A stretch of 37,324 nucleotides of DNA, taken from positions 1 to 37,324 of the forward strand of contig JANXZX010000181.1 of NCBI GenBank assembly GCA_025355325.1, given 5' to 3'. Positions 4,891 through 37,324 of this stretch are shown here, in pieces (the first letter of the stretch is position 1; every line of letters starts with the position of its first letter). The DNA comes from Geobacteraceae bacterium (GTDB lineage: Bacteria > Desulfobacterota > Desulfuromonadia > Geobacterales > Pseudopelobacteraceae). The notes under the pieces are model-generated. The model had not been told where the DNA came from. It searched no databases and saw nothing but the letters and a program-made list of their open reading frames with translations. Both the position numbers and the translations under genes were made by a program.

Positions 4891-5936
4891 AAAAGGTCAC
4901 GGTTCCGTTTTTTATCAGTCACCAGGGGTGTCCGCATACCTGCGTCTTTTGTGATCAGCGCGTAATTTCCGGCGCAGACGGCCATCTCCCCACTGCCGAA
5001 CAGATCAGCGACAAAATTGCCCTCTGGCGGTCAACGGCGGGTGAAAGTCCTCTGGAGGTTGCCTTTTTTGGCGGGACCTTTACCGCACTTCCTGAAGACA
5101 CCCAATCAAAACTGCTTGCACCTTTGCGGCCGTTTCTTGAAAATGGTACGCTCGATTCGATCAGAATATCAACCCGCCCCGATTACATAGACGACCATCG
5201 TGTGGCGTGGCTCTCGGAACGAGGTGTGCGAACTATTGAATTGGGAGTGCAGTCGATGGACGACGCTGTTCTTGCGGCATCTGGTCGCGGGCACTCCGGC
5301 GCTGATTCACTGAACGCCATCCGAAGTATAAAAAAATGGGGGTTGCAGGCGGGAGCCCAGCTGATGCCGGGGCTGCCGGGTGATACTCCGGAAATATCGC
5401 TTGAATCACTGGAGCAGGTCATCGCTGCCGGGGCTGATTTCCTTCGAATTTATCCGACGGTCGTTCTGAAAGGAACCGAATTGGCTCAGCGGTATGCCGC
5501 CGGTAACTTCACTCCTCTTTCACTTGATCGCGGGATTTCCCTGTGCAAGCAGTTGCTGCATTGTGCCATGAAGGCGGACGTTCCGGTTATACGCATCGGT
5601 CTGCAGGCTGATACCGGTCTTGATGAGGAAAATGTTCTGGCCGGTTGCTGGCACCCCGCTCTGGGACAACTGGTGCGCTCGCAGCTGTATGATGATCTCG
5701 TCAGGCGTTTTGTGGCAGACGGGGAGTGCGTAACCGTTCATTGTCACCCGGTGCGGGTATCCGATGTAACCGGCGTTGCGCGGGGCAATCTTCTCAGTCA
5801 GACACAGCGCGGAGTGCATGTGCAGATCACACCGGACGCAACTCTCCACAAAGATGAACTCAGAATCCAAAAAGAAGATTCATGTACCACATATTCGATA
5901 ATTTCAGATCTTCACTATTCCATTCACGAGGTGTAA
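4887..5936 (+). CDS. Elp3-like radical SAM protein
   Basis: A 349-residue radical SAM enzyme with the iron-sulfur motif CPHTCVFC (C15, C19, C22), the FFGGTFT loop and a GVQSMDD strand like those of the Elp3/MiaB-type radical SAM fold. It lacks the C-terminal acetyltransferase domain of true Elp3, so tRNA uridine modification should not be assumed. The substrate is unknown. Its GTG start overlaps the rnc stop (GTGA), so translation is coupled. A link to RNA metabolism is suggested only by this position. The M42 peptidase follows after 3 bases. Confidence 0.85.
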   Translation: MKKVTVPFFISHQGCPHTCVFCDQRVISGADGHLPTAEQISDKIALWRSTAGESPLEVAFFGGTFTALPEDTQSKLLAPLRPFLENGTLDSIRISTRPDYIDDHRVAWLSERGVRTIELGVQSMDDAVLAASGRGHSGADSLNAIRSIKKWGLQAGAQLMPGLPGDTPEISLESLEQVIAAGADFLRIYPTVVLKGTELAQRYAAGNFTPLSLDRGISLCKQLLHCAMKADVPVIRIGLQADTGLDEENVLAGCWHPALGQLVRSQLYDDLVRRFVADGECVTVHCHPVRVSDVTGVARGNLLSQTQRGVHVQITPDATLHKDELRIQKEDSCTTYSIISDLHYSIHEV

Positions 5937-5939
5937 CCG

Positions 5940-7013
5940 ATGCGCAAAGAATCACTCAAATTTCTTGAACAACTGCTTGATGCCCCCAGTCCTTCCGGTT
6001 ATGAACAGCCTGCCCAGCGGGTGTTTCGTGACTATGTGGCCCCCTTTTGCGATGAGCTGACCACCGATGTCATGGGCAATGTTTTCGGCCGCATCAGCGG
6101 CAAGGGCAAGAATCTCCCCAAGGTAATGATTGTCGGCCACACCGATGAAATCGGGCTCCAGATCAAGTACATCGATGACAAAGGTTTCCTCTATTTTGCT
6201 GCAGTAGGCGGGGTAGATGCCCATCTGACACCGGGTAAGCGGGTCGCGGTCCATACAGCCAACGGTGCATTACCGGGGGTAATCGGCAAAAAGCCGATCC
6301 ATCTGATGGACAACAAGGATCGTGAAACCGTCGTCAAGCTTGAATCACAGTATATCGATATCGGCGCAAAAGATAAGAAGGAGGCGCAGAAGCTGGTAAG
6401 GGTAGGGGATGCCGTCACTTTTGACAGTGCTTTCACCCGTCTTCATGGTGACCGGGTTGCTTCACGCGGGTTTGATGATAAAGCGGGCTGCTTTGTCGTT
6501 GCCGAGGTGTTGCGTCAGGTGGCCGCTTCCGGTAAAAAACTGGCGGTTGATCTATATGGTGTTTCATCAGTCCAGGAGGAAATCGGTCTGCGGGGCGGCA
6601 CCACCAGTTGCTATACGGTCAATCCGGATGTAGGCATCTGCGTCGAGGTCGATTTTGCCACCGATCAGCCGGATGTGGAGAAAAAGCACAACGGTGAAGT
6701 CGCGCTCGGCAAAGGGCCGATTCTTGCTCGCGGAGCCAATATAAATCCGCATCTGTTTGAATTGTTGTCGGCAACGGCTGAGAAAGAAAAAATCGCGATC
6801 CAGCATACCGCCACGCCGCGCGCAACCGGGACGGACGCCAATGTCATGCAGATATCACGCGGCGGTGTTGCAACCGCCCTGGTCAAGATTCCGCTGCGGT
6901 ATATGCACACCCCGGTTGAGACGGTTTCACTGACCGATCTGGAAGACGCTGCCAAGCTGATTGTTGCCGCGCTTGGGCGGATAACTTCCAAGGAAGAGTT
7001 TATTCCGAGGTAA
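5940..7013 (+). CDS. M42 family metallo-aminopeptidase
   Basis: A 357-residue FrvX/PepA-like M42 peptidase, a family of dinuclear metal aminopeptidases that form tetrahedral dodecamers. Metal-site motifs are visible in order: GHTDEIG (H67), FDDKAG, QEEIG, VEVDFATD and MHTPVET near the C-terminus. The start ATG has GAGGTG five bases upstream and lies 3 bases after the radical SAM stop, so these genes probably share the rnc transcript. It is likely cytosolic, trimming peptides released by proteases; the specificity cannot be told from sequence. Confidence 0.9.
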   Translation: MRKESLKFLEQLLDAPSPSGYEQPAQRVFRDYVAPFCDELTTDVMGNVFGRISGKGKNLPKVMIVGHTDEIGLQIKYIDDKGFLYFAAVGGVDAHLTPGKRVAVHTANGALPGVIGKKPIHLMDNKDRETVVKLESQYIDIGAKDKKEAQKLVRVGDAVTFDSAFTRLHGDRVASRGFDDKAGCFVVAEVLRQVAASGKKLAVDLYGVSSVQEEIGLRGGTTSCYTVNPDVGICVEVDFATDQPDVEKKHNGEVALGKGPILARGANINPHLFELLSATAEKEKIAIQHTATPRATGTDANVMQISRGGVATALVKIPLRYMHTPVETVSLTDLEDAAKLIVAALGRITSKEEFIPR

Positions 7014-10923: not shown

Positions 10924-10977
10924 TCAGTTTCCGCATAAAACACATTCCACCTGATTAGCACTGACATCTCCCCAATT

Positions 10978-10998
10978 CCTTCTCCATAAGGGAGAAGG
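10978..10998. repeat. Small palindromic repeat after guaA
   Basis: CCTTCTCC (10978-10985) pairs with GGAGAAGG (10991-10998) across five bases, followed by GGCCGAAGGCC, another small inverted repeat. It looks like part of the dispersed palindromic repeat family that also includes the hairpin at 11051-11085. The rest of 10924-11050 shows no coding potential. Confidence 0.5.
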
Positions 10999-11050
10999 TG
11001 GCCGAAGGCCGGACGAGGGGAATCTGAACAGCATAAATCAGCACAGTCAT

Positions 11051-11103
11051 CCCCTCACCCTGACCCTTTCCCTCAGGGTGAGGGGATTGTTTTTTGTTGC
11101 AAT
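11051..11103 (+). terminator. Strong terminator-like repeat, left edge of island
   Basis: A perfect 13-bp stem (11051-11063 with 11073-11085) and a 9-base loop are followed by ATTG and a run of T. It is a plausible guaA terminator. Its tail TTTTTGTTGCAAT (11091-11103) recurs at 19391-19403 beyond a similar C/T- and G/A-rich hairpin. Confidence 0.7.
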
Positions 11104-11210
11104 TTTCCTTGTAACCATTTCATGTAACAGAATAGCTACTTGCTAATTCTGGACCGGATTTTGGTACGGGCAACTCTTTCCGCCAAACAAGACCCTATCT
11201 TTCTTTGACT

Positions 11211-11249
11211 TTGACAAATTGTCTATATACGTTTAGACTATGTTTAAAC
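11211..11249 (+). promoter_or_regulatory. mazEF promoter with repeated operator
   Basis: TTGACA (11211-11216) and TAGACT (11234-11239) have a 17-base spacer. Two direct repeats, GTTTAGAC (11231-11238) and GTTTAAAC (11242-11249), are spaced 11 bases start to start and cover the -10 and start region. GTCTA...TAGAC (11221-11238) also forms a small inverted repeat. This fits autorepression by the MazE AbrB-type domain. Confidence 0.6.
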
Positions 11250-11269
11250 GGCTTATTAAGGGAGAATTT

Positions 11270-11524
11270 ATGGTACAGGCTGAGACTGTTCTTGATATCA
11301 AGCAGTGGGGAAACAATCTGGGAGTTCGTCTACCACAGGTGGTTGCGCGTGCAGCCCATTTACATCGTGATCAACGTGTGAAAGTAACAGTGGAAGATGG
11401 TCGTGTGGTGATTACTCCTGTTGATGCAACACCAACACTTGAAGAAATGATCGCTTCATTCAATCCTGCCAAACATGGTGGCGAAGTCATGGTGACTAAG
11501 CCTGTAGGTGCCGAAAAATGGTAG
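11270..11524 (+). CDS. mazE: MazE-family antitoxin (AbrB fold)
   Basis: An 84-residue SpoVT/AbrB-type DNA-binding antitoxin. The swapped-hairpin domain is seen in IKQWGNNLGVRLPQVVARAAHL followed by VKVTVEDGRVVITPV. The acidic and aromatic C-terminus (LEEMIASFNPAKHGGE) is the usual toxin-neutralising tail. The ATG at 11270 has GGGAG five bases before it and is preferred over the upstream in-frame ATG at 11240, which falls inside the promoter. It overlaps mazF by 7 bases. Confidence 0.9.
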   Translation: MVQAETVLDIKQWGNNLGVRLPQVVARAAHLHRDQRVKVTVEDGRVVITPVDATPTLEEMIASFNPAKHGGEVMVTKPVGAEKW

Positions 11525-11904
11525 ATATGGTAGAAAATAATTGGGTACCGGATCGGCAAGAAGTAGTATGGATTAATTGCAATCCGCAGGCGGGGAACGA
11601 AATGCGCGACATACATCCGTTTTTAGTGTTGTCACCCAAATCTTTCAATGAGAAGACTTCGCTGGTCATCGGATTGCCGATGACCACAGCGGAATACAAT
11701 GCTGACAATCTGTTCGCGGTGAATGCAGGGAAAGCACAAGGCAAGAAATCTGACAAAACAAGTTATGTGCTTTGCTATCAAATCAAGTCTTTTGATTGGC
11801 GTATGCGGAAGTGTTCTTCTCACCCAAAAGGCAGACTTTCTGACGAAATCTTTACAGAATGTTGTGCACGACTTAATCAGATAATTCAACTCTCCCAGCA
11901 ATAG
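11518..11904 (+). CDS. mazF: MazF/PemK-family mRNA interferase
   Basis: A 128-residue PemK/MazF toxin, a family that cleaves mRNA at short single-stranded sites. The fold motifs are WVPDRQEVVWINCNPQAGNE, HPFLVLSPKSFNEKT and GLPMTT. Aligned with E. coli MazF, Glu24 and Thr52 are retained, but Arg29 is replaced by His (RDIHP instead of GHRP), apparently a subgroup feature. The start is ATG at 11518 or a second ATG at 11527. It overlaps mazE and is expected to be co-transcribed with it. Cleavage specificity cannot be predicted. Confidence 0.88.
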   Translation: MVDMVENNWVPDRQEVVWINCNPQAGNEMRDIHPFLVLSPKSFNEKTSLVIGLPMTTAEYNADNLFAVNAGKAQGKKSDKTSYVLCYQIKSFDWRMRKCSSHPKGRLSDEIFTECCARLNQIIQLSQQ

Positions 11905-12008
11905 CTGCCGGTCACAAACTGCGCCATCGGCCTTTGAAGATGGTGCGATCTTTCGAGATAATCAACTCCAACTCCTTTGCGAAAGAATTTAGCCTGGTTC
12001 TTTTGTAG

Positions 12009-12129
12009 TTGAGCTACAAAGGACGAATTCTGATGGTTGTCTATACTTACAGAGATGAAAACAATACGGATCATATCTGCCTGGAAAGCAAATGAGCCGC
12101 AACGGAGGTGCTATGAAAGTCAGTTCTGA
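12009..12129 (+). pseudogene. Decayed BrnT toxin C-terminal remnant
   Basis: Two adjacent frames together spell the second half of a BrnT toxin. From 12009 the first frame reads SYKGRILMVVYTYRDEN. After a one-base shift near 12060 the second frame reads TIRIISAWKANEPQRRCYE, ending in TGA at 12127-12129. BrnT proteins carry a VVYT(Y/E)R...IRIISARKA...RRxYE pattern, and the intact copy at 17718 has the related IRIISVRKAN. No N-terminal half (FEWD...KHG) is seen upstream, and TAG at 12006 closes the frame. The other bases of 11905-12283 hold no intact gene; a 7-bp hairpin lies at 12002-12020. Confidence 0.7.
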
Positions 12130-12163
12130 CAAAATGCATGAAAAAGGAGTCTCTGGCTGTTAA
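12113..12163 (+). pseudogene. Stub of antitoxin following the BrnT remnant
   Basis: An ATG at 12113 overlaps the end of the BrnT remnant, in the arrangement usual for brnT-brnA pairs, and is preceded by GGAGG (12104-12108). It opens a frame of only 16 codons before TAA. It is probably the truncated start of the partner antitoxin. The sequence is too short to identify independently. Confidence 0.4.
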
Positions 12164-12283
12164 TATTGTCAACTTAGCACTAGAAGTAAACCAAGTTAAC
12201 TACTCCCCATGGTCGTCCCATTCCAATTCAGCCTAATCATAGTCATTCACTGCAGAGATAACCGTCGGTTTAGTTAACCTGTC

Positions 12284-12589
12284 TCATGCTGCGAGAGGTA
12301 ATGGGTGAACCTCTTTATCCAAGCGATCTTCCAGTATTTCGAGAGCAACTTCCATATCATAATGGCTCTGAAGATTCATCCAGAATTGTGCCTCCATATT
12401 AAAGAACCGCCCCAGACGGAGTGCTGTGTCTGCAGTAATCCCACGACGACCATGCACAATCTCGTTTATACGCCTTGGAGTTACACCAATATTCAATGCC
12501 AGCCGATACTGACTAACTCCCATCGGCCCAAGAAATTCTGCAACCAATATCTCACCGGGATGAATAGGGGAAAAATCACGCTTTGCCAT
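12284..12589 (-). CDS. higA: HigA-family antitoxin (XRE)
   Basis: A 101-residue HigA/VapI-type antitoxin. The N-terminus FSPIHPGEILVAEFL is the family hallmark. A helix-turn-helix covers VSQYRLALNIGVTPRRINEIVHGRRGITADTALRL, and the C-terminus has the usual FWMNLQSHYDME segment. The ATG at 12589 is chosen over a longer frame because GAGGTG lies five bases before it, directly after the higB stop. It is the second gene of the higBA pair, toxin first, which is the normal higBA order. Confidence 0.93.
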   Translation of the reverse strand: MAKRDFSPIHPGEILVAEFLGPMGVSQYRLALNIGVTPRRINEIVHGRRGITADTALRLGRFFNMEAQFWMNLQSHYDMEVALEILEDRLDKEVHPLPLAA

Positions 12590-12600
12590 ATAAGCACCTC

Positions 12601-12882
12601 TCAATGGTAGTCAACAATCTCAACATCAAATGCGTCACCGCCGTACCAGACAAAACAAATACGCCACTGCTTATTTATTCTGATGCTGTATTGTCCTTCT
12701 CGGTCATGATGCAAAGCCTCCAGGTGGTTTGACGGTGGCACACGAAGAGTATCAACAACAGTAGCAGCATTAAGCATGTTGAGCTTGATAGCCGCTGCTC
12801 TCTGAATATCCTGTGGCAGTTTTGTTGAAAATCGGCCTTGGAATAGTTTTTCAGTCTCCTTGCACCTGAACGTTTTGATCAT
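12601..12882 (-). CDS. higB: HigB-family toxin (RelE fold)
   Basis: A 93-residue HigB toxin, a RelE-superfamily ribosome-dependent mRNase. Family features are FRCKETEKLFQG at the N-terminus, RAAAIKLNMLNAAT, PPSNHLEALHHDREGQYSIRINKQWRICF and the end VEIVDYH. The start ATG at 12882 has no well-placed Shine-Dalgarno, and the -10 box is only five bases upstream, so the mRNA may be leaderless. The higA start follows 11 bases after the stop. Confidence 0.93.
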   Translation of the reverse strand: MIKTFRCKETEKLFQGRFSTKLPQDIQRAAAIKLNMLNAATVVDTLRVPPSNHLEALHHDREGQYSIRINKQWRICFVWYGGDAFDVEIVDYH

Positions 12883-12887
12883 GGCTC

Positions 12888-12916
12888 ATATTATCCTCTC
12901 AGGATATTATCGTCAA
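12888..12916 (-). promoter_or_regulatory. higBA promoter with embedded operator
   Basis: On the minus strand TTGACG (12916-12911) and TAATAT (12893-12888) are separated by 17 bases. The spacer and -10 contain the inverted repeat TATCCT-GAG-AGGATA, extended to 10-base arms with one mismatch (12888-12897 and 12901-12910). This is a natural HigA binding site. The predicted transcription start is at or within two bases of the higB ATG. Confidence 0.7.
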
Positions 12917-12980
12917 TAGATATTAGTTGTTCGCCTGACTATCCTGAAATATATTTTTCCTCGACTGACGACTTGATTCG

Positions 12981-13000
12981 GAATTCAGTGAACTGAATTC
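12981..13000. repeat. 20-bp perfect palindrome
   Basis: GAATTCAGT (12981-12989) and ACTGAATTC (12992-13000) flank a 2-base centre, in the 230-base space between higB and the DUF1330 gene. It has the form of a dimeric repressor site, but no gene starts next to it. The remaining sequence of 12917-13112 shows no intact gene. Confidence 0.55.
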
Positions 13001-13112
13001 ATAGTACAAAATGTAAAAAAATAAAGGGAATCAGAGAGCTGTTACTGCTCGTTTAAAGAAGCCAAGGGAAAGCCAGGGACATCCATGATAAGTTTTGTCA
13101 AGGACAGACTCC

Positions 13113-13412
13113 TCAGTTCTCACCAGGGTTGTCTTCCGTCAGAACTAAATTCATATCGCAGGCATCCTTACGCAACTCTTTCCACGGTCGGTATTCCTCA
13201 GAATCATACCAGGCATGAAAGTGCTTCACACTTGGCCATTCATGAATCACCAACAATTTAGGAGACCAGTTGCCGGTTATCACCAGCGGCTCAAGTCCCC
13301 GAGAGATTATCCTGCCGCCGTACTGTTCTATTGTCGGCAAATGACCAGCTACATATTGTTTGAGTTTCTCCATATTTTTTACTGAAACGTCAATAACAGC
13401 ATAGACAGCCAT
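13113..13412 (-). CDS. DUF1330 family protein
   Basis: A 99-residue DUF1330 protein of the dimeric alpha-beta barrel (ferredoxin-like) type. Visible features are AVIDVSVKNMEKLKQYV, GGRIISRG, LVIHEWPSVKHFHAWYDSEEYRPW and a short acidic tail. The biochemical role of the family is not established. The ATG has AGGAGG seven bases upstream. It lies 37 bases after the cupin gene on the same strand and may be co-transcribed with it. Confidence 0.85.
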   Translation of the reverse strand: MAVYAVIDVSVKNMEKLKQYVAGHLPTIEQYGGRIISRGLEPLVITGNWSPKLLVIHEWPSVKHFHAWYDSEEYRPWKELRKDACDMNLVLTEDNPGEN

Positions 13413-13449
13413 TATGAGGCCTCCTTGTCAGTCATAGAATAGCGGTCAA

Positions 13450-13806
13450 TTAACTTTGATTTTGGTATTTACCCATTACCGGTGACCAAGCGTCAACAGC
13501 CTTTACTGCCGCATCCGTTGTATAAACCGCATGTGGAACATTTGATGGAATGGCTATAGTTTCACCGGCTTTTACCTCAAAAATCTTCTCGCCTTGTTCG
13601 AAATACAGCACCCCTTCCAGCACCAATGTGATTTGTTCGCTTTCGTGGGAATGATTGTTAAACGTGCAGTCCGGATCAACTTCAAAATAGGTCAGCATGG
13701 TATTATTCAGCGAAACCGCCCACTGCCTCGCACCGGGGACATCATCTGAAAGTTTAAGTGCATCTTTGGGGTAATATTGGATTTCCTGGTTTGGTTGGTT
13801 ATTCAT
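13450..13806 (-). CDS. Small cupin-domain protein
   Basis: A 117-residue single-domain cupin. The first cupin motif is seen as NNHSHESEQITLVLEG, containing HxHxxxE metal ligands, and the second as GETIAIPSNVPHAVYTT with its histidine. It probably binds a divalent metal; the substrate is unknown. The ATG at 13806 is chosen over an upstream in-frame ATG at 13845 because GGAG stands at a suitable distance. A 10-bp hairpin lies between it and the ATPase gene upstream. Confidence 0.82.
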   Translation of the reverse strand: MNNQPNQEIQYYPKDALKLSDDVPGARQWAVSLNNTMLTYFEVDPDCTFNNHSHESEQITLVLEGVLYFEQGEKIFEVKAGETIAIPSNVPHAVYTTDAAVKAVDAWSPVMGKYQNQS

Positions 13807-13852
13807 GTTGATTGCTCCATAATTTTTGAACGTTATATCTTTCAACGGTTGA

Positions 13853-13881
13853 GCGCAACACCGGGTTCACTGGTGTTGCGC
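13853..13881. terminator. 10-bp hairpin between ATPase and cupin genes
   Basis: GCGCAACACC (13853-13862) pairs exactly with GGTGTTGCGC (13872-13881) across nine bases. It lies 24 bases past the stop of the minus-strand ATPase gene. There is no T tract on the minus strand, so it may be a weak or Rho-assisted terminator, an mRNA-end stabiliser or an operator. Confidence 0.45.
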
Positions 13882-13905
13882 CTGGTTGGAAATTATTTTT
13901 CACGA

Positions 13906-16170
13906 TTATTGTTTTTTATCTCGTTCTGATTTGGCGATCTTTTTCACTTTTTCACGTTCATCAATCTTGTTCCGTATGGATTGAATCCGATCTCTGACAT
14001 CTTTAGCAACTTCAAATATTTCCGTAGCGACCTGAACTTCTTCACCCAGATAGAGCTTAATGCCAACAATCAACGGCTCAATTTTATCCGCTACCGGTGA
14101 TTTGACAAGCAAATCAAGAGCTTGCCTGCCGCAGCCTGCCGCAGTCAGGCCGGCAAAAATTTCAATGGTGTCGTCAACATGTTCCGATGCAAGTTTGCTA
14201 TTCTGAAGATACTTTTGTGTCGGCGCAAGTGCTTCATCGCCCCTGTCCATTGCACAAAGAATGCAAGCATATGTATGTTGATAAAAAGTATCTTCTTTTG
14301 GGTTAAGGGCAATGGCTTTTGTTATCCACTCATTCGCTTCTTTAAGACAGCTCCCGTTAGCATATTTGTAAATAGCCCAAGCTGCAGAGTTAAGTATTTC
14401 TGCTGTACCACCTGAACTCTCAATTAATGATTCTGTCATCACTCGGGCTAAATCGGGTAATTCACGTTCAACAATAAAGAACTTTAATAATCCCTCAATA
14501 GAAATCTTAATATCTTGCCCACGGTATACGGCATCAGAGTACGTTTTAAAAGTATCCTTATTGCTATAAGCAACATTAGCCAAAACTATCCAGTGGAACG
14601 CAAACTGTTTGCCGCCCTTGCTAGCTTTTACGAATGCCTGTTTGGCCTTGTCATATTGATGTTCTGTATGGAATAGGCATCCAAGAAGTGCCCAAGCATC
14701 ATAATTTTTCGGATTAGTTTTGACTTTGGTTTCTAATCCTAATAGTAATTTATCAATTGTTTCTTTCTCCATGTCTTTGGACATTATTGAGAGACTTTCA
14801 GAGGCAACTTCATTCTGGGGGCTTCTTGAATTGCTGAATTCTGGAAAGAATCTTTGCATTGATTCAATAAATTTTATCGGTGCTGAAGTTAGTATTTGGG
14901 ACTTGATTTCCTCAGAAGATAATTTTTTCAAAATTGCATCATAGGCAACAAAATGATCTCGACAAAGCTCCGGCGCGAGCTCACATGCCTCTTCTGCTAT
15001 CGATCGGGTTACATCCATCAACTCATCATGCCCGTAAAACGACACCATGAAATTTACCACCGCCTTTACCCGCTCTGATGGCGCACCACGTTTCCGCATC
15101 AGATAGTAGATGTTGTACATCCTCTCTGTCGTTTGGTAGAACTTTGTCCGCTTGCCCTGTTCGCTGACCTTGACAGCGCCACGGCCCACCAATCGAGCCA
15201 TGAGCGAACTAGTCTTGTTCACATCCAATCGCGCCAGTCGTGCAATATCCTTTGCTGTGGACGGGTCCCACAGTTCTGCCAGCGCCAGATACGCTTTACG
15301 CTCAATAGGTGGTAAATTATCCAGATGGCTTTTGAAATATTCTGTGTTGTCATCTACCAGATTTAATAAATCACCCATCAGATCTTGAAAAGACAGTTTT
15401 GATCCAAATGAGGAAATGATGCTGAGTAGCCGAGGGTTGCCGCCGGTCAGAATCTGGATGGGTCGGATGCGATCATCTTCCAAATGTTGCCCGGTAACCG
15501 CCTCCCAAACGGCAATACACTCATCTTTTTCGAGGGGCTTGAGATCATGTTGTTTGAATAATTCGTACATCGCGCTGCCGGAGTTATCTACCTGATCCAT
15601 CCGGCTTGTCGCGCTGGCAAGCAACATAATACGGGGCTCGTTGATCAAAGTGTGTCTGAGTGTCCAGGCATCTTGATCACTAATTTGACCATCGAAAAGC
15701 ATATTAAAGTTTTCGATAATAAGCAGTAAGCGCCTTCCATGGCTGTCGGCAAAATCCATGAGTTTTGCCAATGCCCGTTCACCAAGGCGCTTATCGTCTT
15801 TTTCATCATTTAACTCTTCAACTATTCGCTCCCATTTTTTGTCACCGGTCTGTTGTGCCAGATGAAACAGCGCTTCCAGCCAGAATTCACCGACACTGCA
15901 AATGCTGTAACTTTCCTCCGCAAACACTATCGGATACCACTTATCCTTCAAATCATCTGCCGTGCGAGATTCAAGGCCGATTCTGAGCAAAAGAGTGGTC
16001 TTGCCGATACCGCGAGGGCCTATGACCAACACATGCTGGTTTGCGTTTGTGGTGTTCTCGCGGATAATCCGAATTATAATGTCAAAGTCTGTCTGGCGGA
16101 CGGCAAATGAGTGCAGCAGTTCTTCGTCGGTCAAAAACGCGGGGTTATACTTCATGATACGTCTTGTCAT
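13906..16170 (-). CDS. STAND/AAA ATPase with wHTH and TPR repeats
   Basis: A 754-residue protein with a signalling-NTPase layout. Walker A is GPRGIGKTT (51-59). The Walker B strand LLLIIEN (148-154) has Glu-Asn in place of Asp-Glu. LLASATSRM resembles a sensor 1 strand, and GGNPRLL matches the sensor 2-like motif of archaeal-type/STAND ATPases. A winged-helix segment lies about 290-360 (STAKDIARLARLDVNKTSSLMARLVGRG). From about 470 onward helical TPR-like repeats are visible (YDAWALLGCLFHTEHQYDKAKQAFVKA). The basic tail is rich in Lys and Glu. The ATG is 1 base after the upstream ATPase stop with GGAGG six bases before it, so the two are coupled. The function is not known. Architectures of this kind occur among transcriptional activators and anti-phage STAND sensors. 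Confidence 0.8.
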   Translation of the reverse strand: MTRRIMKYNPAFLTDEELLHSFAVRQTDFDIIIRIIRENTTNANQHVLVIGPRGIGKTTLLLRIGLESRTADDLKDKWYPIVFAEESYSICSVGEFWLEALFHLAQQTGDKKWERIVEELNDEKDDKRLGERALAKLMDFADSHGRRLLLIIENFNMLFDGQISDQDAWTLRHTLINEPRIMLLASATSRMDQVDNSGSAMYELFKQHDLKPLEKDECIAVWEAVTGQHLEDDRIRPIQILTGGNPRLLSIISSFGSKLSFQDLMGDLLNLVDDNTEYFKSHLDNLPPIERKAYLALAELWDPSTAKDIARLARLDVNKTSSLMARLVGRGAVKVSEQGKRTKFYQTTERMYNIYYLMRKRGAPSERVKAVVNFMVSFYGHDELMDVTRSIAEEACELAPELCRDHFVAYDAILKKLSSEEIKSQILTSAPIKFIESMQRFFPEFSNSRSPQNEVASESLSIMSKDMEKETIDKLLLGLETKVKTNPKNYDAWALLGCLFHTEHQYDKAKQAFVKASKGGKQFAFHWIVLANVAYSNKDTFKTYSDAVYRGQDIKISIEGLLKFFIVERELPDLARVMTESLIESSGGTAEILNSAAWAIYKYANGSCLKEANEWITKAIALNPKEDTFYQHTYACILCAMDRGDEALAPTQKYLQNSKLASEHVDDTIEIFAGLTAAGCGRQALDLLVKSPVADKIEPLIVGIKLYLGEEVQVATEIFEVAKDVRDRIQSIRNKIDEREKVKKIAKSERDKKQ

Positions 16171-16171
16171 A

Positions 16172-17419
16172 TCACACCTCCCGTTCCAGAACCGGCGTAT
16201 AGAAAAGAAAATTTCGTTTTTTCCACCAATCCCGTATCAGGTTCGAGACGAAGACATAGCCATCGCTGCCAGGAACAACGTAACCATCGTGCTCAAGTAC
16301 GCTGATGATCTCCTGTTGCGCCTCAATACCGGTAAGGCCTTCAAAACTGTAGAGCTTCCTGAACGCCTCCAACGCTTTTCGAGACAGAACGCCTGTGATG
16401 GCTGCCTCTGACAGCATTTCTACAGCAAGTGTGTTTAAATCGGGGCCAAGAACACTTTTCAGTCTTTCTTCGTAATGTGTCAGCTCTTTCTGGCAACGTA
16501 CGCCGAGCATCTCTTTTTCGTAAATCCCCTCAACCTCGTCCGCCTTAAACTCAAAGCGCTTCCTTCTCTCGCAGGCTTCTAAAACGCTGTCGAAGAAGAT
16601 CTGTACATGATGAGGGATGCAGCATCCAATGCGCTTGACTATTGCCTTGTCGGCATCATCTATAAACGTAATGCCATATTCTTTTGCAAGTGCGTTCAGG
16701 CATCCGACAGCAGTTGGTTCGTCCCATGGTTTGAGTTCAAAAGGAGGAAAGTTGTTCATGGTGGCACTCAATCCGGCTTGTCTTAGAATCGGGTCCAATC
16801 CGATGCTCCCTGACACCACTATTCTGAGTTGTCCCTGGTATTGAATGCTGTTTTTTCTCAGCCACGACATAAAATCATCCGCTTTGCCACGTCTCTCCGA
16901 AGTAATCGTAAAGTCATCACCTTTGAGCATGCGGTTCACAAGTATCGGCAATTCATCCAGAAACAGCAGTACTGGCTTGTCTGAATCAGCCAGGATAGCC
17001 ATTAGCTGGTCTCCTTTATCGCTCCAGTCAGCGGAAGTTAAACCGCCACGGATGGCTATACCGATCTCACTTATATTGATAGTATCGATACGATCTAAAA
17101 TTGTGCTGACGATATTAGAGAAAGCACCCACGACCTTTCCCTACAGCTTTTTGTGCGGATAAATGGCTTTGCTCAGCTCTACCATGGCATCTGCGGAATC
17201 GCGGCATTTTTGAAAGTCTACATATAGACACGTATAGGATTCACTTAGAAGGCGCGCAGTTTCTTTCATCAGGCTTGTTTTGCCCATACGACGTTGAGCA
17301 AGCAACACTTGGTGCGCCCCTTCGTGAATCTTTTTCTGAAAAAGGCGAAGATCATCTTCCCTACCCCAAAAACGATCGCCTTCAACATAGTTACCGTGTG
17401 CTTGCTTAAGTTTTTCCAT
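16172..17419 (-). pseudogene. AAA/STAND ATPase interrupted by in-frame amber codon
   Basis: One continuous frame of 416 codons broken by a single TAG at 17143-17141 (codon 93). Before it are 92 residues with the Walker A variant QRRMGKTSL typical of the archaeal-type ATPase family. After it, in the same frame and with no shift, come GKVVGAFSNI... and a clear Walker B, VLLFLDELP (DE at about 155-156). A sensor-like RIVVSGS strand and a C-terminal winged-helix-like end (HDGYVVPGSDGYVFVSNLIRDWW) follow. A GTG at 17131 could restart translation but would lack Walker A. ATG at 17419 has GGGAGG eight bases upstream. The downstream ATPase gene starts 1 base after the stop. It is either a recent nonsense mutant, a suppressed stop, or a sequencing error. 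Confidence 0.85.
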
Positions 17420-17440
17420 AATGTAGACCTCCCAACATAA

Positions 17441-17522
17441 TTGTTGCCAACAGTTCTGTTTGAATTATAGGTGACGCCAAAACTATTGTCAATAGATGTG
17501 ACAACAATTCTGTTGGCAACAG
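17441..17522. promoter_or_regulatory. Inverted operator-like pair around the promoter
   Basis: TGTTGCCAACAG (17442-17453) lies just downstream of the -10, and its exact reverse complement CTGTTGGCAACA (17510-17521) lies upstream of the -35. The distal element is also a perfect 13-base palindrome, CTGTTGGCAACAG (17510-17522). A weaker TGTT half-site follows each copy toward the promoter (AACAGTTCTGTT; ACAACAATTCTGTT). This suggests repressor dimers bound on both sides of the promoter, possibly looping. No candidate repressor gene is adjacent. The rest of 17523-17680 holds only a small GCCTC/GAGGC hairpin (17546-17563). Confidence 0.65.
17464..17492 (-). promoter_or_regulatory. Perfect consensus promoter for ATPase pair
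   Basis: On the minus strand TTGACA (17492-17487), a 17-base spacer and TATAAT (17469-17464) match the sigma-70 consensus at all twelve positions. The start of transcription should fall near 17457, about 38 bases before the ATG at 17419. Confidence 0.85.
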
Positions 17523-17680
17523 ATCGGTTGGTGTCATACTGGGTTGCCTCCTCCAGGAGAGGCGTAAACGCAAAGCAGCCCTGAAGTACCTAAGTCCAGC
17601 TTGAATATTCCGAAAATCTGTATTAGTTCCTCGATATTCCTAATTCCTTGATAACACGCTTTGAGTGACCGTGTGATCGT

Positions 17681-17709
17681 TTGACAATAAATACATTTGT
17701 ATATACAAT
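17681..17709 (+). promoter_or_regulatory. brnTA promoter with palindromic operator
   Basis: TTGACA (17681-17686), a 17-base spacer and TACAAT (17704-17709) precede brnT. The perfect 12-base palindrome TTGTATATACAA (17697-17708) covers the -10, the expected place for the BrnA autorepressor. The leader to the brnT ATG at 17718 is at most a few bases, with no strong Shine-Dalgarno. Confidence 0.75.
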
Positions 17710-17717
17710 AAGAGCGT

Positions 17718-17987
17718 ATGAAGTTTGAATGGGACGACCCCAAAAATGCAGTAAACATTGAGAAGCACGGTATTGATTTCAACGATGCTCACGAGTTGTT
17801 TGAGGGTGACAAGCTCATTATCCAAGATGATCGCAAGGATTATGGGGAGAGAAGAGATATTGCAATTGGCCGGATCGATGGGCGGCTTGTAATAGCAGTA
17901 TTTACTCAAAGAGGCCAAATAATCCGGATCATCTCTGTCAGAAAGGCGAATAGTCGTGAAAAAGAACGATTTGGAAAAGCAGTCTAA
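17718..17987 (+). CDS. brnT: BrnT-family toxin
   Basis: An 89-residue BrnT toxin with a RelE-like fold that inhibits translation. The hallmark N-terminus FEWDDPKNAVNIEKHGIDFNDA and C-terminal RGQIIRIISVRKANSREKERF are both present, and the length is standard. The ATG at 17718 is close behind a strong promoter with a palindromic operator, so the transcript is nearly leaderless. It overlaps brnA by 32 bases. A broken second BrnT remnant exists at 12009-12129. Confidence 0.93.
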   Translation: MKFEWDDPKNAVNIEKHGIDFNDAHELFEGDKLIIQDDRKDYGERRDIAIGRIDGRLVIAVFTQRGQIIRIISVRKANSREKERFGKAV

Positions 17988-18246
17988 GACGAATTGGGAA
18001 CGGGTTGATGCTATGGGTGATGAGGATATCGACTATTCAGATATCCCTGAGCTTACCGATGATATTATTGCCAAAGCTACATTTGTTCCAGCAAAACAAC
18101 TAATCTCGATCAGGCTTGATACCGACGTGGTCGCTTGGCTTAAGAAATCTGGTAGAGGATATCAGACTCGTGCTAATAAGCTTTTGCGATCTTTGATGGA
18201 GCAACAGGAAAAAACAACAAAAAGGACACGGGCCCGGGCGGCTTAG
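17956..18246 (+). CDS. brnA: BrnA-family antitoxin
   Basis: A 96-residue antitoxin of the brnTA pair. The central DIDYSDIPELTDDIIAKATFVPAK is the toxin-binding part, and ISIRLDTDVVAWLKKSGRGYQTRANKLLRSLM is the ribbon-helix-helix DNA-binding domain, usual for BrnA. The start taken is GTG at 17956; an ATG at 18013 inside the frame would give a protein lacking only the Lys-rich N-terminus. The tail is Arg- and Lys-rich. Confidence 0.92.
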   Translation: MKKNDLEKQSKTNWERVDAMGDEDIDYSDIPELTDDIIAKATFVPAKQLISIRLDTDVVAWLKKSGRGYQTRANKLLRSLMEQQEKTTKRTRARAA

Positions 18247-18295
18247 CGAAAGATAATTTCTGTTTCGTCAGTTATCCCAAGGAGGCACTAAACTT

Positions 18296-18643
18296 ATGGC
18301 TTTCTCTGAATTTGAGCAGAAAAAAATCGAAAAGGCACTGACTGCTTTCCTTGCCAAAAGACGTCCAGCTCCACACATCCGCCCGAAGCTAGACTTTGGT
18401 TATAGACTTTCAGGCCAAAGTGTTGAGCTTTTCGAAATCCGTCCGCAATGGGATGACCCAACCCGAATTCGGGAGCAACCATTTGCAAAGGCAACCTACG
18501 TCAAAACGCAAAATGCCTGGAAGGTGTTCTGGCAACGTGCCGACTTAAAATGGCATGGCTACCAACCAAATCTTATGGTTTCATCCATCGAAAAGTTTCT
18601 GAAAGTAGTGGATGCAGACGAGTATAACTGTTTCTTTGGTTAG
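18296..18643 (+). CDS. DUF3024 family protein
   Basis: A 115-residue protein recognised as DUF3024 by the ordered motifs KIEKALTAFLAKRRPAPHIRPKLDFGY, VELFEIRPQWDDP and the Trp-rich WKVFWQRADLKWHGYQP. The function of the family is unknown, but it often sits among accessory and TA genes. AAGGAGG stands ten bases before the ATG. It follows brnA by 49 bases on the same strand. Confidence 0.8.
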   Translation: MAFSEFEQKKIEKALTAFLAKRRPAPHIRPKLDFGYRLSGQSVELFEIRPQWDDPTRIREQPFAKATYVKTQNAWKVFWQRADLKWHGYQPNLMVSSIEKFLKVVDADEYNCFFG

Positions 18644-18736
18644 TTACCCGTGCCAGCGGTATCTCACGCATGTTGAAGAAATAAGTTCTGTCTCCTGAAC
18701 TCACACGGAAATAGTTATACACCTGCACAAAAGGGA

Positions 18737-19342
18737 ATGACGGACATGATCAAGGTGCTTGCAATTAATGGTTCATATCGGGTTGATGGCATTACCGATC
18801 AATCTGTCGAGGCTCTTGCACAGGCTCTTGAGTTGGGTGGTGCGGAAGTCGAGGTAATACTTCTTCGTGAATTTCCTATCGAGTTTTGCCTGAATTGCCG
18901 TGCCTGTACCCAACAGCCCGGTGTGGCACCGGGGAAGTGTGTGATCTGTGACCGTATGCAGGAATTGATCGATAAGATCGAAAGGGCGGATTGCTATATT
19001 CTTGCTGCTCCGACCAACCTTGGCTCAGTTACGGCTATCTTTAAACGCTTTATGGAGCGGTTGGCTGTGTATGCCTTTTGGCCATGGGATATGAATGGAC
19101 CACAGTTTAGAAAAGAGCAGGCGCCGAAGAAAAAAACACTGCTGGTCTCCTCGTGTGCAGCTCCGGGAATTTTGGGGCGCGTTTTTTTTGGAACCAGCAA
19201 ACAACTCAAAATGTCGGCAAAAACGATTGGCGCCGAAGTTGTTGGTACACTTTTTACCGGTATGATTGCCAAGCAGCAACACCCGAAGCTGCCGGAACGC
19301 GTACGGACTAAGATTAAAGCTTTAGCGGTAAGACTGGTTTAG
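18737..19342 (+). CDS. Iron-sulfur flavoprotein-like NAD(P)H-dependent reductase
   Basis: A 201-residue flavodoxin-fold reductase. The N-terminal INGSYRVDG loop is the FMN phosphate-binding segment. A compact cysteine cluster C51-x2-C54-x2-C57 with C68-x2-C71 resembles the 4Fe-4S motif of iron-sulfur flavoproteins. LAAPTNLGSVTAIFKRFMERL is the second flavin-contacting region. It may reduce quinones, oxygen species or an electron carrier; the substrate is not predictable. The start is ATG at 18737 or ATG at 18746. A terminator-like hairpin follows. Confidence 0.82.
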   Translation: MTDMIKVLAINGSYRVDGITDQSVEALAQALELGGAEVEVILLREFPIEFCLNCRACTQQPGVAPGKCVICDRMQELIDKIERADCYILAAPTNLGSVTAIFKRFMERLAVYAFWPWDMNGPQFRKEQAPKKKTLLVSSCAAPGILGRVFFGTSKQLKMSAKTIGAEVVGTLFTGMIAKQQHPKLPERVRTKIKALAVRLV

Positions 19343-19354
19343 AAAAACTCTTGT

Positions 19355-19403
19355 CCTCTCCCTCAGTATCCACTTGGGGAGAGGGCTTGATTTTTGTTGC
19401 AAT
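19355..19403 (+). terminator. Terminator-like repeat, right edge of island
   Basis: CCTCTCCC (19355-19362) pairs with GGGAGAGG (19377-19384), followed by a T run. Its tail TTTTTGTTGCAAT (19391-19403) is identical to 11091-11103, and 17 of 19 bases match over the extended tail. It probably terminates the reductase transcript. Confidence 0.6.
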
Positions 19404-19434
19404 AGCGGATGAATGATTCTATTCAGTACTTCCT

Positions 19435-35972: not shown

Positions 35973-36138
35973 AACAGTAAAAGGTCTGAATAAGTTTTGT
36001 TAGGGTATGCTTGTTAATGTATGTTTATGTGTAAAAAGTTAGCTACACTTGTATATAATTATATATAAAAAATGTTGACAATTATTTTATTTGCTGTAAA
36101 TGGTATACAAAAGATAATCCTATGTATCGGATGTTTGA
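35973..36138 (+). promoter_or_regulatory. XRE/pilM upstream region
   Basis: Very AT-rich. It holds a 14-base palindrome TATATAATTATATA (36052-36065), a TTGACA (36075-36080) whose spacing to the next -10-like box is too long (23 bases), and an extended -10 TGGTATACA (36101-36109). A four-codon ORF MFE* (36131-36142) overlaps the start of the regulator gene. A sigma-70 promoter for the regulator is plausible. Confidence 0.4.
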
Positions 36139-36342
36139 ATGAGTGGACTGAACAAAGTTAAGACAATTCGTGAATCGCGGCTGATGAGCAAATCGGAGCT
36201 CGCCAGAAAAGCGGGGGTTTCAACTCTGACAATTGATCGCATTGAACGCGGTGAAAAATGCCGTATGGAAACCAAACGGAAAATTATTTTGGCCTTGGGA
36301 TATAGTCTTGAAGACAAAAACAAGGTATTTCAGGAACAGTAA
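36139..36342 (+). CDS. Small XRE-family HTH regulator
   Basis: A 67-residue helix-turn-helix protein: VKTIRESRLMSKSELARKAGVSTLTIDRIERGEKCRMETKRKIILALGY covers nearly the whole length. It lies 15 bases before pilM and directly after the minor-pilin genes. It may control the pilM operon or itself. The ribosome site is weak and the start overlaps a mini-ORF, so it may be translated at low level. Confidence 0.85.
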   Translation: MSGLNKVKTIRESRLMSKSELARKAGVSTLTIDRIERGEKCRMETKRKIILALGYSLEDKNKVFQEQ

Positions 36343-36357
36343 TTAACGGGACTGGCT

Positions 36358-37324
36358 ATGTTTCTTTTTAAAAAGAAAAAAGACGTTATCGGTGTTGACA
36401 TCGGATCAAGTTCCGTTAAAGTTGTTCAGTTGAAGGACAATAAGGGAACTTTCCAGTTGCTGAATGTGGGGATTTTTCCTTTACCACCTGAGGCAATAGT
36501 TGATAACACATTAATGGATAGTTCCTCTGTTGCCACGGTTATACGAAATCTGGTTCAAAACCTTGACATCAAGTCAAAAGATGTCGTTTGCTCGATTTCG
36601 GGAAACTCGGTAATTATCAGAAAAATTATTCTTCCGACGATGCCGCAGGAAGAGCTTGAGGATCAGATTTCATGGGAGGCCGAGCAGTATATTCCATTTG
36701 ATATTAATGATGTAAATATGGATTTTCAGATATTGTCGCCTGACAGCCATGACCAAACAAAAATGAATGTGCTGCTGGTTGCAAGTAAAAAAGATATTAT
36801 CAACGATTACGTAGCGGTTTTCAGTGAAGCCGGAATGCAGCTTTCGGTTATTGACGTTGACTCATTTGCGATTCAAAACGCATTTGAAGTTAATTATGAC
36901 TATGATTCGAACGATATTATTGCGCTCGTTAATATTGGCGCAAGTATTATGAATATAAACGTTATAAAGGATGGCCTCACGCTTTTTACCAGAGACGTAC
37001 AGATGGGGGGCAACTTATATACGGAAGAGATTCAAAAGCAGGTGGGATTGAGCAGCAAAGACGCAGAAAACGGAAAGCTGCTTGTGAATGAGTCAACTGA
37101 CAAACCACTTCGGAATGTTGTCTTAAAAGTAAATGAAACTATTGCTCAGGAAATCCGGCGTTCACTTGACTTTTACAATTCGACAGCAAGTGATGATCGT
37201 ATATCGCGTGTCTTTATGAGTGGCGGTTGTTCGAAAGTGTACCACCTGATAAACGCTATTTCAGAACAGGTTGGCTTGCCGGTTGACAGACTGAACCCGT
37301 TTGCAAAACTTAAATATAATGAAA
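36358..37324 (+). CDS. pilM: Type IV pilus assembly protein PilM (5' part)
   Basis: An actin-like ATPase of the pilus alignment complex; 322 codons visible, running off the right edge. The N-terminus FLFKKKKDVIGVDIGSSSVKVVQL carries the phosphate-1 loop, IALVNIGAS the second, and MSGGCSKV the adenosine loop; the usual length is about 350. It binds the PilN cytoplasmic tail in homologues. The ATG at 36358 follows GGGA at a normal distance. PilN, O, P and Q would be expected beyond the window. Confidence 0.95.
   Translation, partial: MFLFKKKKDVIGVDIGSSSVKVVQLKDNKGTFQLLNVGIFPLPPEAIVDNTLMDSSSVATVIRNLVQNLDIKSKDVVCSISGNSVIIRKIILPTMPQEELEDQISWEAEQYIPFDINDVNMDFQILSPDSHDQTKMNVLLVASKKDIINDYVAVFSEAGMQLSVIDVDSFAIQNAFEVNYDYDSNDIIALVNIGASIMNINVIKDGLTLFTRDVQMGGNLYTEEIQKQVGLSSKDAENGKLLVNESTDKPLRNVVLKVNETIAQEIRRSLDFYNSTASDDRISRVFMSGGCSKVYHLINAISEQVGLPVDRLNPFAKLKYNE

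What the first reader, a model, noticed from the sequence alone, without database searches (positions are those of the whole stretch)
13906..17419. Tandem STAND/AAA ATPase pair as a candidate undescribed two-gene system
Two adjacent P-loop ATPase genes of the archaeal/STAND kind, one small (Walker A RRMGKTS, Walker B LDELP) and one large with wHTH and TPR-like repeats, are translationally coupled by a one-base gap. They lie in a TA-rich island. The large protein has a sensor-effector layout, and its Walker B acid is changed (IIEN). This combination fits a sensing system such as anti-phage defence or conditional regulation, but nothing in the sequence proves a function.
Basis: partly seen in the sequence, partly recalled or inferred. 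Interest (0 to 1): 0.72.

Follow-up and report, generated by a model that had tools for sequence, protein, structure and literature searches.

The report
Self-repressing two-ATPase sensor operon
Two adjacent ATPase genes form a module that has spread between bacterial phyla together with a conserved DNA switch in front of it; the larger protein probably sits on that switch and lets go when its repeat arm senses something, perhaps a virus, which would be an undescribed way of wiring a bacterial alarm.

Summary
The pair is real and conserved. The upstream gene (SMALL, 415 codons) is one frame broken by an in-frame TAG at codon 93; the downstream gene (BIG, 754 aa) is intact. In 20 of 21 close relatives from six phyla, and in 14 loci related at roughly 22-49% identity, SMALL lies directly before BIG. 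The odd Walker B of BIG (EN) is the family rule, not decay. In the window they bracket a perfect promoter. Six loci that lack SMALL keep the palindromes, and the recognition helix of BIG's winged helix tracks them at 24% ATPase identity. So BIG very probably reads its own operator. BIG's C-terminal TPR array varies from almost none to very long. The window's copy lies in an 8.5-kb toxin-antitoxin island absent from two congeners; plasmid relatives sit beside Pycsar and Qat. Best reading: a self-repressed STAND/ORC-like sensor module, probably for conflict with phages or other elements. Binding, trigger and output are untested; no effector domain was found.

The parts
16172..17419 (-). SMALL: ORC/STAND-like P-loop ATPase with C-terminal winged helix, 415 codons, interrupted by in-frame TAG at 17143-17141 (codon 93)
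   Evidence: open in relatives; model pLDDT 84.7, best fold matches 2qen and 2fna at Z 24; dN/dS 0.037 before and 0.032 after the stop against L002, so the lesion is recent or a sequence error
13906..16170 (-). BIG: 754 aa, STAND/ORC-like ATPase (1 to about 280), TrmB-like winged helix (288-346), conserved helical linker to about 437, TPR array (about 460-650), conserved C-terminal block
17464..17492 (-). perfect sigma-70 promoter, TTGACA-17-TATAAT (12 of 12)
   Evidence: chance expectation of any promoter-like site in the 341-bp stretch 0.9
17502..17530 (.). upstream operator block: two palindromic sites 15 bp apart (17517-17530 CAACCGATCTGTTG, 17502-17515 CAACAGAATTGTTG, read on the - strand)
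17433..17461 (.). downstream operator block over the expected transcription start: two sites 15 bp apart (AAACAGAACTGTTG, CAACAATTATGTTG, read on the - strand)
   Evidence: both blocks are nearly unchanged against L002 while the DNA between them has diverged
10924..19434 (.). 8.5-kb insertion between guaA and cydD that carries MazEF, HigBA, the pair and BrnTA; guaA and cydD lie 15 and 25 bp apart in two congeneric genomes

Best explanation
The locus is a horizontally spread two-gene module. BIG is an ORC/STAND-type ATPase whose winged helix binds palindromic operators on both sides of its own strong promoter and keeps the operon off. Its catalytic Walker B glutamate is replaced by Asn, so it should bind ATP but hydrolyse it poorly; SMALL keeps a normal DE and is the active ATPase partner. 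A ligand caught by the variable TPR arm switches BIG, frees the promoter and lets SMALL and BIG accumulate and act, most likely as a conflict or defence response. Shown by sequence: the pair, the operators, their link with the recognition helix of BIG, the TPR variability. Inferred: repression, the nucleotide switch, the ligand, the output. In the window SMALL is broken while BIG and the operators are intact, so at best BIG and its self-control remain there.
For: Pair adjacent in 20 of 21 close loci with upstream DNA and in 14 distant ones; in 390 genomes of the phylum every SMALL with E < 1e-100 (8 of 8) has BIG next to it. Gene gap -4 to +3 bp in 14 of 15 and Mantel r 0.956 between SMALL and BIG distances, though co-inheritance alone would give this. 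Operators: 20 of 21 close loci with 2-4 sites in 300 bp against about 0.02 expected; spacer 4 stands out with z 14; genome-wide the double unit falls nearly only at this operon. Who reads it: operators persist in 6 loci without SMALL (L012, L040, L041, L043, L052, L053), and these fall at 3 places in the tree; among distant members (ATPase identity 21-29%) the recognition helix matches the window at 31-62% where the canonical site is present and 12-38% where not. Sensor: TPR units of 105 and 129 bp repeated at DNA level; the C-terminal part evolves fastest (dN/dS 0.03 SMALL, 0.09 BIG N-part, 0.23 BIG C-part). Conflict setting.
Against: No binding or repression was measured. No effector domain in any member, and no other clustered operator in the genome, so the output is unknown. 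Neighbourhood evidence for defence is patchy and has no statistical control. BIG without SMALL exists, so the two-ATPase division of labour cannot be universal. The operator geometry in the most distant pairs rests on few loci. Several relatives are MAG contigs, where frameshifts may be errors. The BIG model is of moderate quality (pLDDT 76, pTM 0.46).
Confidence: 0.52

Rival explanations
1. A MalT-like STAND transcription regulator of an ordinary physiological stimulus, autoregulated, without any defence role; SMALL is an accessory ATPase.
For: ATPase-wHTH-TPR layout and operators; many chromosomal copies lie among housekeeping genes; the related genomes of L040 and L041 hold BIG at a conserved, vertically inherited place.
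Against: No regulon: clustered operators occur only at its own promoter. Sparse distribution (22 of 395 genomes even with weak hits), horizontal spread, island setting and very variable repeats are unlike a housekeeping regulator.
Confidence: 0.2
2. A toxin-antitoxin-like module: SMALL is costly or toxic, BIG restrains it and represses the operon.
For: SMALL is damaged or lost while BIG stays open in the window (TAG), L017 (P-loop deleted in frame), L067 (P-loop deletion) and L012 (gene missing); autoregulatory operators are typical of TA modules; three TA pairs are neighbours.
Against: BIG is damaged with SMALL open in L019 and both are in L071, so the asymmetry is small; SMALL is under strong purifying selection (dN/dS 0.03), and no toxin fold was seen.
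Confidence: 0.12
3. An ORC/Cdc6-like or TnsC-like DNA machine: the palindromes are iterons or target sites for replication or transposition.
For: Best fold matches of BIG include A. pernix ORC2 (1w5t, Z 17.2); TnsC and MuB appear lower; Pfam ORC-CDC6-like passes its cut-off.
Against: No replication, partition or transposase gene is conserved beside it, there is no motif at the 3' end, and the sites bracket a sigma-70 promoter.
Confidence: 0.05
4. The operators are read by an unrelated host repressor, for example a MarR-type protein.
For: The site resembles common MarR-type inverted repeats (general knowledge); single sites occur elsewhere in the genome (15 against 3 of the control pattern).
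Against: The same site is kept in hosts from at least six phyla and on plasmids; it changes with the recognition helix of BIG.
Confidence: 0.08

Closest known systems
Avs (AVAST) and other antiphage STAND/NLR-like proteins
   Same: STAND ATPase core followed by a helical repeat sensor; sporadic, horizontally spread
   Different: No N-terminal nuclease, SIR2, TIR or other effector; an operator-reading winged helix; a second ATPase gene in the operon; no match among PADLOC Avs models
MalT and other STAND transcription regulators
   Same: ATPase, winged helix, TPR-like sensor, link to DNA
   Different: DNA is apparently read by the winged helix next to the ATPase, no LuxR-type C-terminal HTH; clustered sites only at its own promoter
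Archaeal Orc1/Cdc6 proteins and the archaeal STAND-like ATPases 2qen and 2fna
   Same: Fold: AAA+ core plus winged helix; Orc proteins bind inverted repeats near their own gene (general knowledge)
   Different: TPR arm, bacterial sigma-70 promoter between the sites, no replicon
CapW, BrxR and RptR repressors of defence operons (PMC9122588, PMC9122601, PMC12255303)
   Same: A defence-linked operon silenced by a repressor on palindromic or repeated sites in its promoter
   Different: Those are separate small regulators; here the repressor would be the STAND sensor itself
LypABC CARD-NLR system (PMC13236601)
   Same: LypB has an Orc1-like AAA+ domain followed by TPR-like repeats
   Different: LypABC has a partner with an endonuclease domain; nothing comparable is in this pair; sequence relationship not tested here

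Membership tests
STAND / ORC-Cdc6-like P-loop ATPase (fold superfamily) | P-loop AAA+ core with C-terminal winged helix | tested here: met
   SMALL to 2qen and 2fna Z 24, BIG to 1w5t and 2qen Z 17; AAA_16 and TrmB profiles in 19 and 18 of 19 BIG
STAND / ORC-Cdc6-like P-loop ATPase (fold superfamily) | Acidic Walker B pair (DD or DE) | tested here: not met
   BIG has invariant E-N; SMALL has D-E. This lowers hydrolysis claims for BIG, not the fold
Avs / AVAST | Match to Avs models | tested here: not met
   PADLOC gives only weak partial mad8 and PDC-S hits; EfAvs5 appears among fold matches at Z 13.4, like many NLRs
Avs / AVAST | N-terminal effector domain | tested here: not met
   The ATPase begins at about residue 10; no extra domain in any member scanned
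MalT-type regulator | C-terminal LuxR-type HTH | tested here: not met
   C-terminal block is helical with no HTH profile
MalT-type regulator | ATPase, winged helix and TPR-like sensor in this order | tested here: met
Autorepressed operon (CapW/BrxR/RptR-like logic) | Conserved sites overlapping or flanking the operon promoter | tested here: met
Autorepressed operon (CapW/BrxR/RptR-like logic) | The encoded protein binds the sites and represses | not testable with these tools
   Only indirect: the sites follow BIG and its recognition helix
Antiphage defence system | Protection against phage | not testable with these tools
   No assay possible
Antiphage defence system | Neighbourhood enriched in defence genes | tested here: inconclusive
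   Pycsar, AbiE, Qat, Cas6, IetA/WYL and TA near some loci, none near others; no background rate measured
Type II toxin-antitoxin system | Match to a known toxin or antitoxin family | tested here: not met
   No Pfam or NCBIfam TA match for SMALL or BIG

The most novel reading that the evidence does not exclude
A class of immune or conflict sensors in which the STAND/ORC-like receptor is itself the repressor parked on its own promoter: ligand binding to an evolvable TPR arm both frees the promoter and arms a second, catalytically active ATPase, so that detection and induction are one event.
Probability: 0.28. Interest if true: 0.82.

Novelty: new variant of a known kind. Interest (0 to 1): 0.62.

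Why it matters
If BIG is both sensor and operator-bound repressor, it would merge two parts that are separate in the known antiphage systems compared here (receptor, and CapW- or BrxR-type regulator). It also hands experimenters a ready test: the operator is defined to the base, conserved across phyla, read by a named helix, and a promoter-reporter can be used to fish for the trigger of the TPR arm.

Tried and rejected
Frameshift in SMALL: rejected, the two pieces are in one frame and an in-frame TAG divides them. Degenerate Walker B as decay: rejected, family-wide. Phage or virus origin: no relative in IMG/VR or phage records; viral fold matches to BIG have TM-scores of 0.25 or less and mean nothing. 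Known defence family: PADLOC, NCBIfam and Pfam give only partial, sub-threshold hits apart from a weak ORC-CDC6-like match. Third conserved gene: none. Operator sites at the 3' end (transposon-end reading): none. General rule of a 6-4-6 palindrome in all distant pairs: the statistic is blurred by nested palindromes in a few loci, so it is only reported as seen by eye in L044, L054, L067, L068. Distant SMALL-like ATPases in the phylum (profile E 1e-13 to 1e-48) are not paired with BIG and were left out. Literature searches found no description of this pair, but the library is partial.

Full report
What is in the window. BIG runs from 16170 to 13906 on the minus strand (754 aa). Directly before it, with one base between, ends SMALL (17419-16172). 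In the nearest relative (L002, Geobacter L1geo, 95% identical) and the others with full sequence the frame is open there. The codons after the stop are under the same strong selection as those before it (dN/dS 0.032 and 0.037), so the break is recent or an error of the assembly.

Conservation of the pair. A scan of one genome per species brought 19 loci from Desulfobacterota, Planctomycetota, Hydrogenedentota, Kiritimatiellota, Bacteroidota and others. SMALL lies directly upstream of BIG in all that hold the upstream DNA except L012. Further loci from the window's phylum and from Planctomycetota, at about 22-49% identity, keep the order SMALL-BIG. In 390 genomes of the phylum all eight SMALL genes of the family have BIG beside them. 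Stop-to-start distance is -4 to +3 bp in 14 of 15. The tree of BIG places a Bacteroidota sequence within Desulfobacterota and the two Geobacter lineages apart, so the module moves horizontally.

The operators. Upstream of the operon stand sites CAACA-N4-TGTTG, mostly in tandem with a 15-bp period, in two blocks; elsewhere in the loci there are only rare single sites. In 20 of 21 close loci there are 2-4 sites (one mismatch allowed) within 300 bp against about 0.02 expected; the one exception, L016, has the coherent variant AAACA-N4-TGTTT. Palindromes with a 4-base spacer exceed shuffles by z 14. In the window a perfect TTGACA-17-TATAAT promoter (17492-17464) lies between the blocks. Start-to-start distances between the nearest sites of the two blocks are 51-57 bp in most loci and 42 bp in two, about five and four helical turns (read). 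Over whole genomes the double unit is found nearly only at the operon.

Which protein reads them. SMALL is missing from L012, from plasmids of Agrobacterium and Sphingobium (L052, L053) and from a Desulfobacterota family (L040, L041, L043), yet all six keep the sites. These cases sit at three places of the BIG tree, although one origin for some of them is not ruled out. L040 and L041 share only 24% of the ATPase domain with the window but 62% of the winged helix's recognition helix, and have canonical sites; distant members without such sites have 12-38% there. I conclude, as inference, that BIG binds the operators.

Anatomy. SMALL models well (pLDDT 84.7) and matches the archaeal ATPases 2qen and 2fna at Z 24, then NLR and ORC proteins. 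BIG (pLDDT 76) matches A. pernix ORC2 and 2qen at Z 17 and consensus TPR superhelices in its C-terminal half. SMALL keeps Walker B D-E; BIG has invariant E-N, so it should be a poor hydrolase. Between residue 437 and the conserved end the proteins differ from almost no TPR (L015, L018) to very long arrays (L016, 1154 aa), built of 105- or 129-bp units still alike at DNA level. No effector domain was found in any member scanned.

Setting. In two congeneric genomes guaA and cydD are 15 and 25 bp apart; in the window 8.5 kb lie between them, with MazEF, HigBA, the pair and BrnTA. Relatives lie beside two Pycsar-type cyclases (L052), a Pycsar cyclase and effector plus AbiE (L053), a Qat system (L054), Cas6 (L042), and IetA/WYL genes (L055). 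Other copies lie among housekeeping genes. No copy was found in viral contigs or phage records.

Mechanism. Most likely BIG holds the operon off at two operator blocks, the TPR arm detects a ligand, nucleotide state changes, the promoter is freed, and SMALL plus BIG accumulate and act. Steps shown by sequence are the sites, the promoter and the link of sites with BIG. Repression, trigger, ATP switch and output are inferred. Because no other gene carries clustered sites, the output probably lies in the pair itself, which argues against a plain transcription regulator. SMALL is broken or missing while BIG is open in the window, L017, L067 and L012, which fits a costly effector half, but L019 and L071 show the reverse or both, so this is weak.

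Comparison. It works partly like CapW, BrxR and RptR (repressors of defence operons, PMC9122588, PMC9122601, PMC12255303) and partly like Avs or MalT (STAND sensors), but is a member of none of these by the tests made. No paper found in the searched library describes it.

Noticed in passing
window 11240-11904, 12284-12882, 17718-18246: Three complete toxin-antitoxin pairs (MazE/PemK-like, HigA/HigB-like, BrnT/BrnA) within one 8.5-kb island; an 11-of-12 sigma-70 promoter-like site at 17681-17709 (+) precedes BrnT.
   Followed up: partly
window 10924-19434 against G709:C29 and G712:C125: guaA and cydD are nearly adjacent in two congeners; the stretch downstream of guaA is an insertion place for a TA/defence island. 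No integrase was seen in it.
   Followed up: partly
L017:4921-5997 and L067 about 5740-6552: SMALL has lost its P-loop segment in both (in frame in L017, with frameshift in L067) while BIG stays open.
   Followed up: partly
L053:4200-5524 and L052:5087-7826: SMALL-less BIG on conjugative plasmids lies next to Pycsar cyclase genes, in Agrobacterium two cyclases and a ThiF-like gene; whether BIG takes part in that system is open.
   Followed up: no
L040, L041, L043 (one Desulfobacterota family): BIG alone, with canonical operator sites, at what looks like one conserved chromosomal place: a vertically inherited branch.
   Followed up: partly
G000 whole genome: Single CAACA-N4-TGTTG sites occur 15 times against 3 of the reversed control pattern; outside the operon none is clustered, but the excess is unexplained.
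   Followed up: partly
window 36001-37000: GC falls to 0.376 with strong GC skew at the end of the contig, unlike the rest.
   Followed up: no
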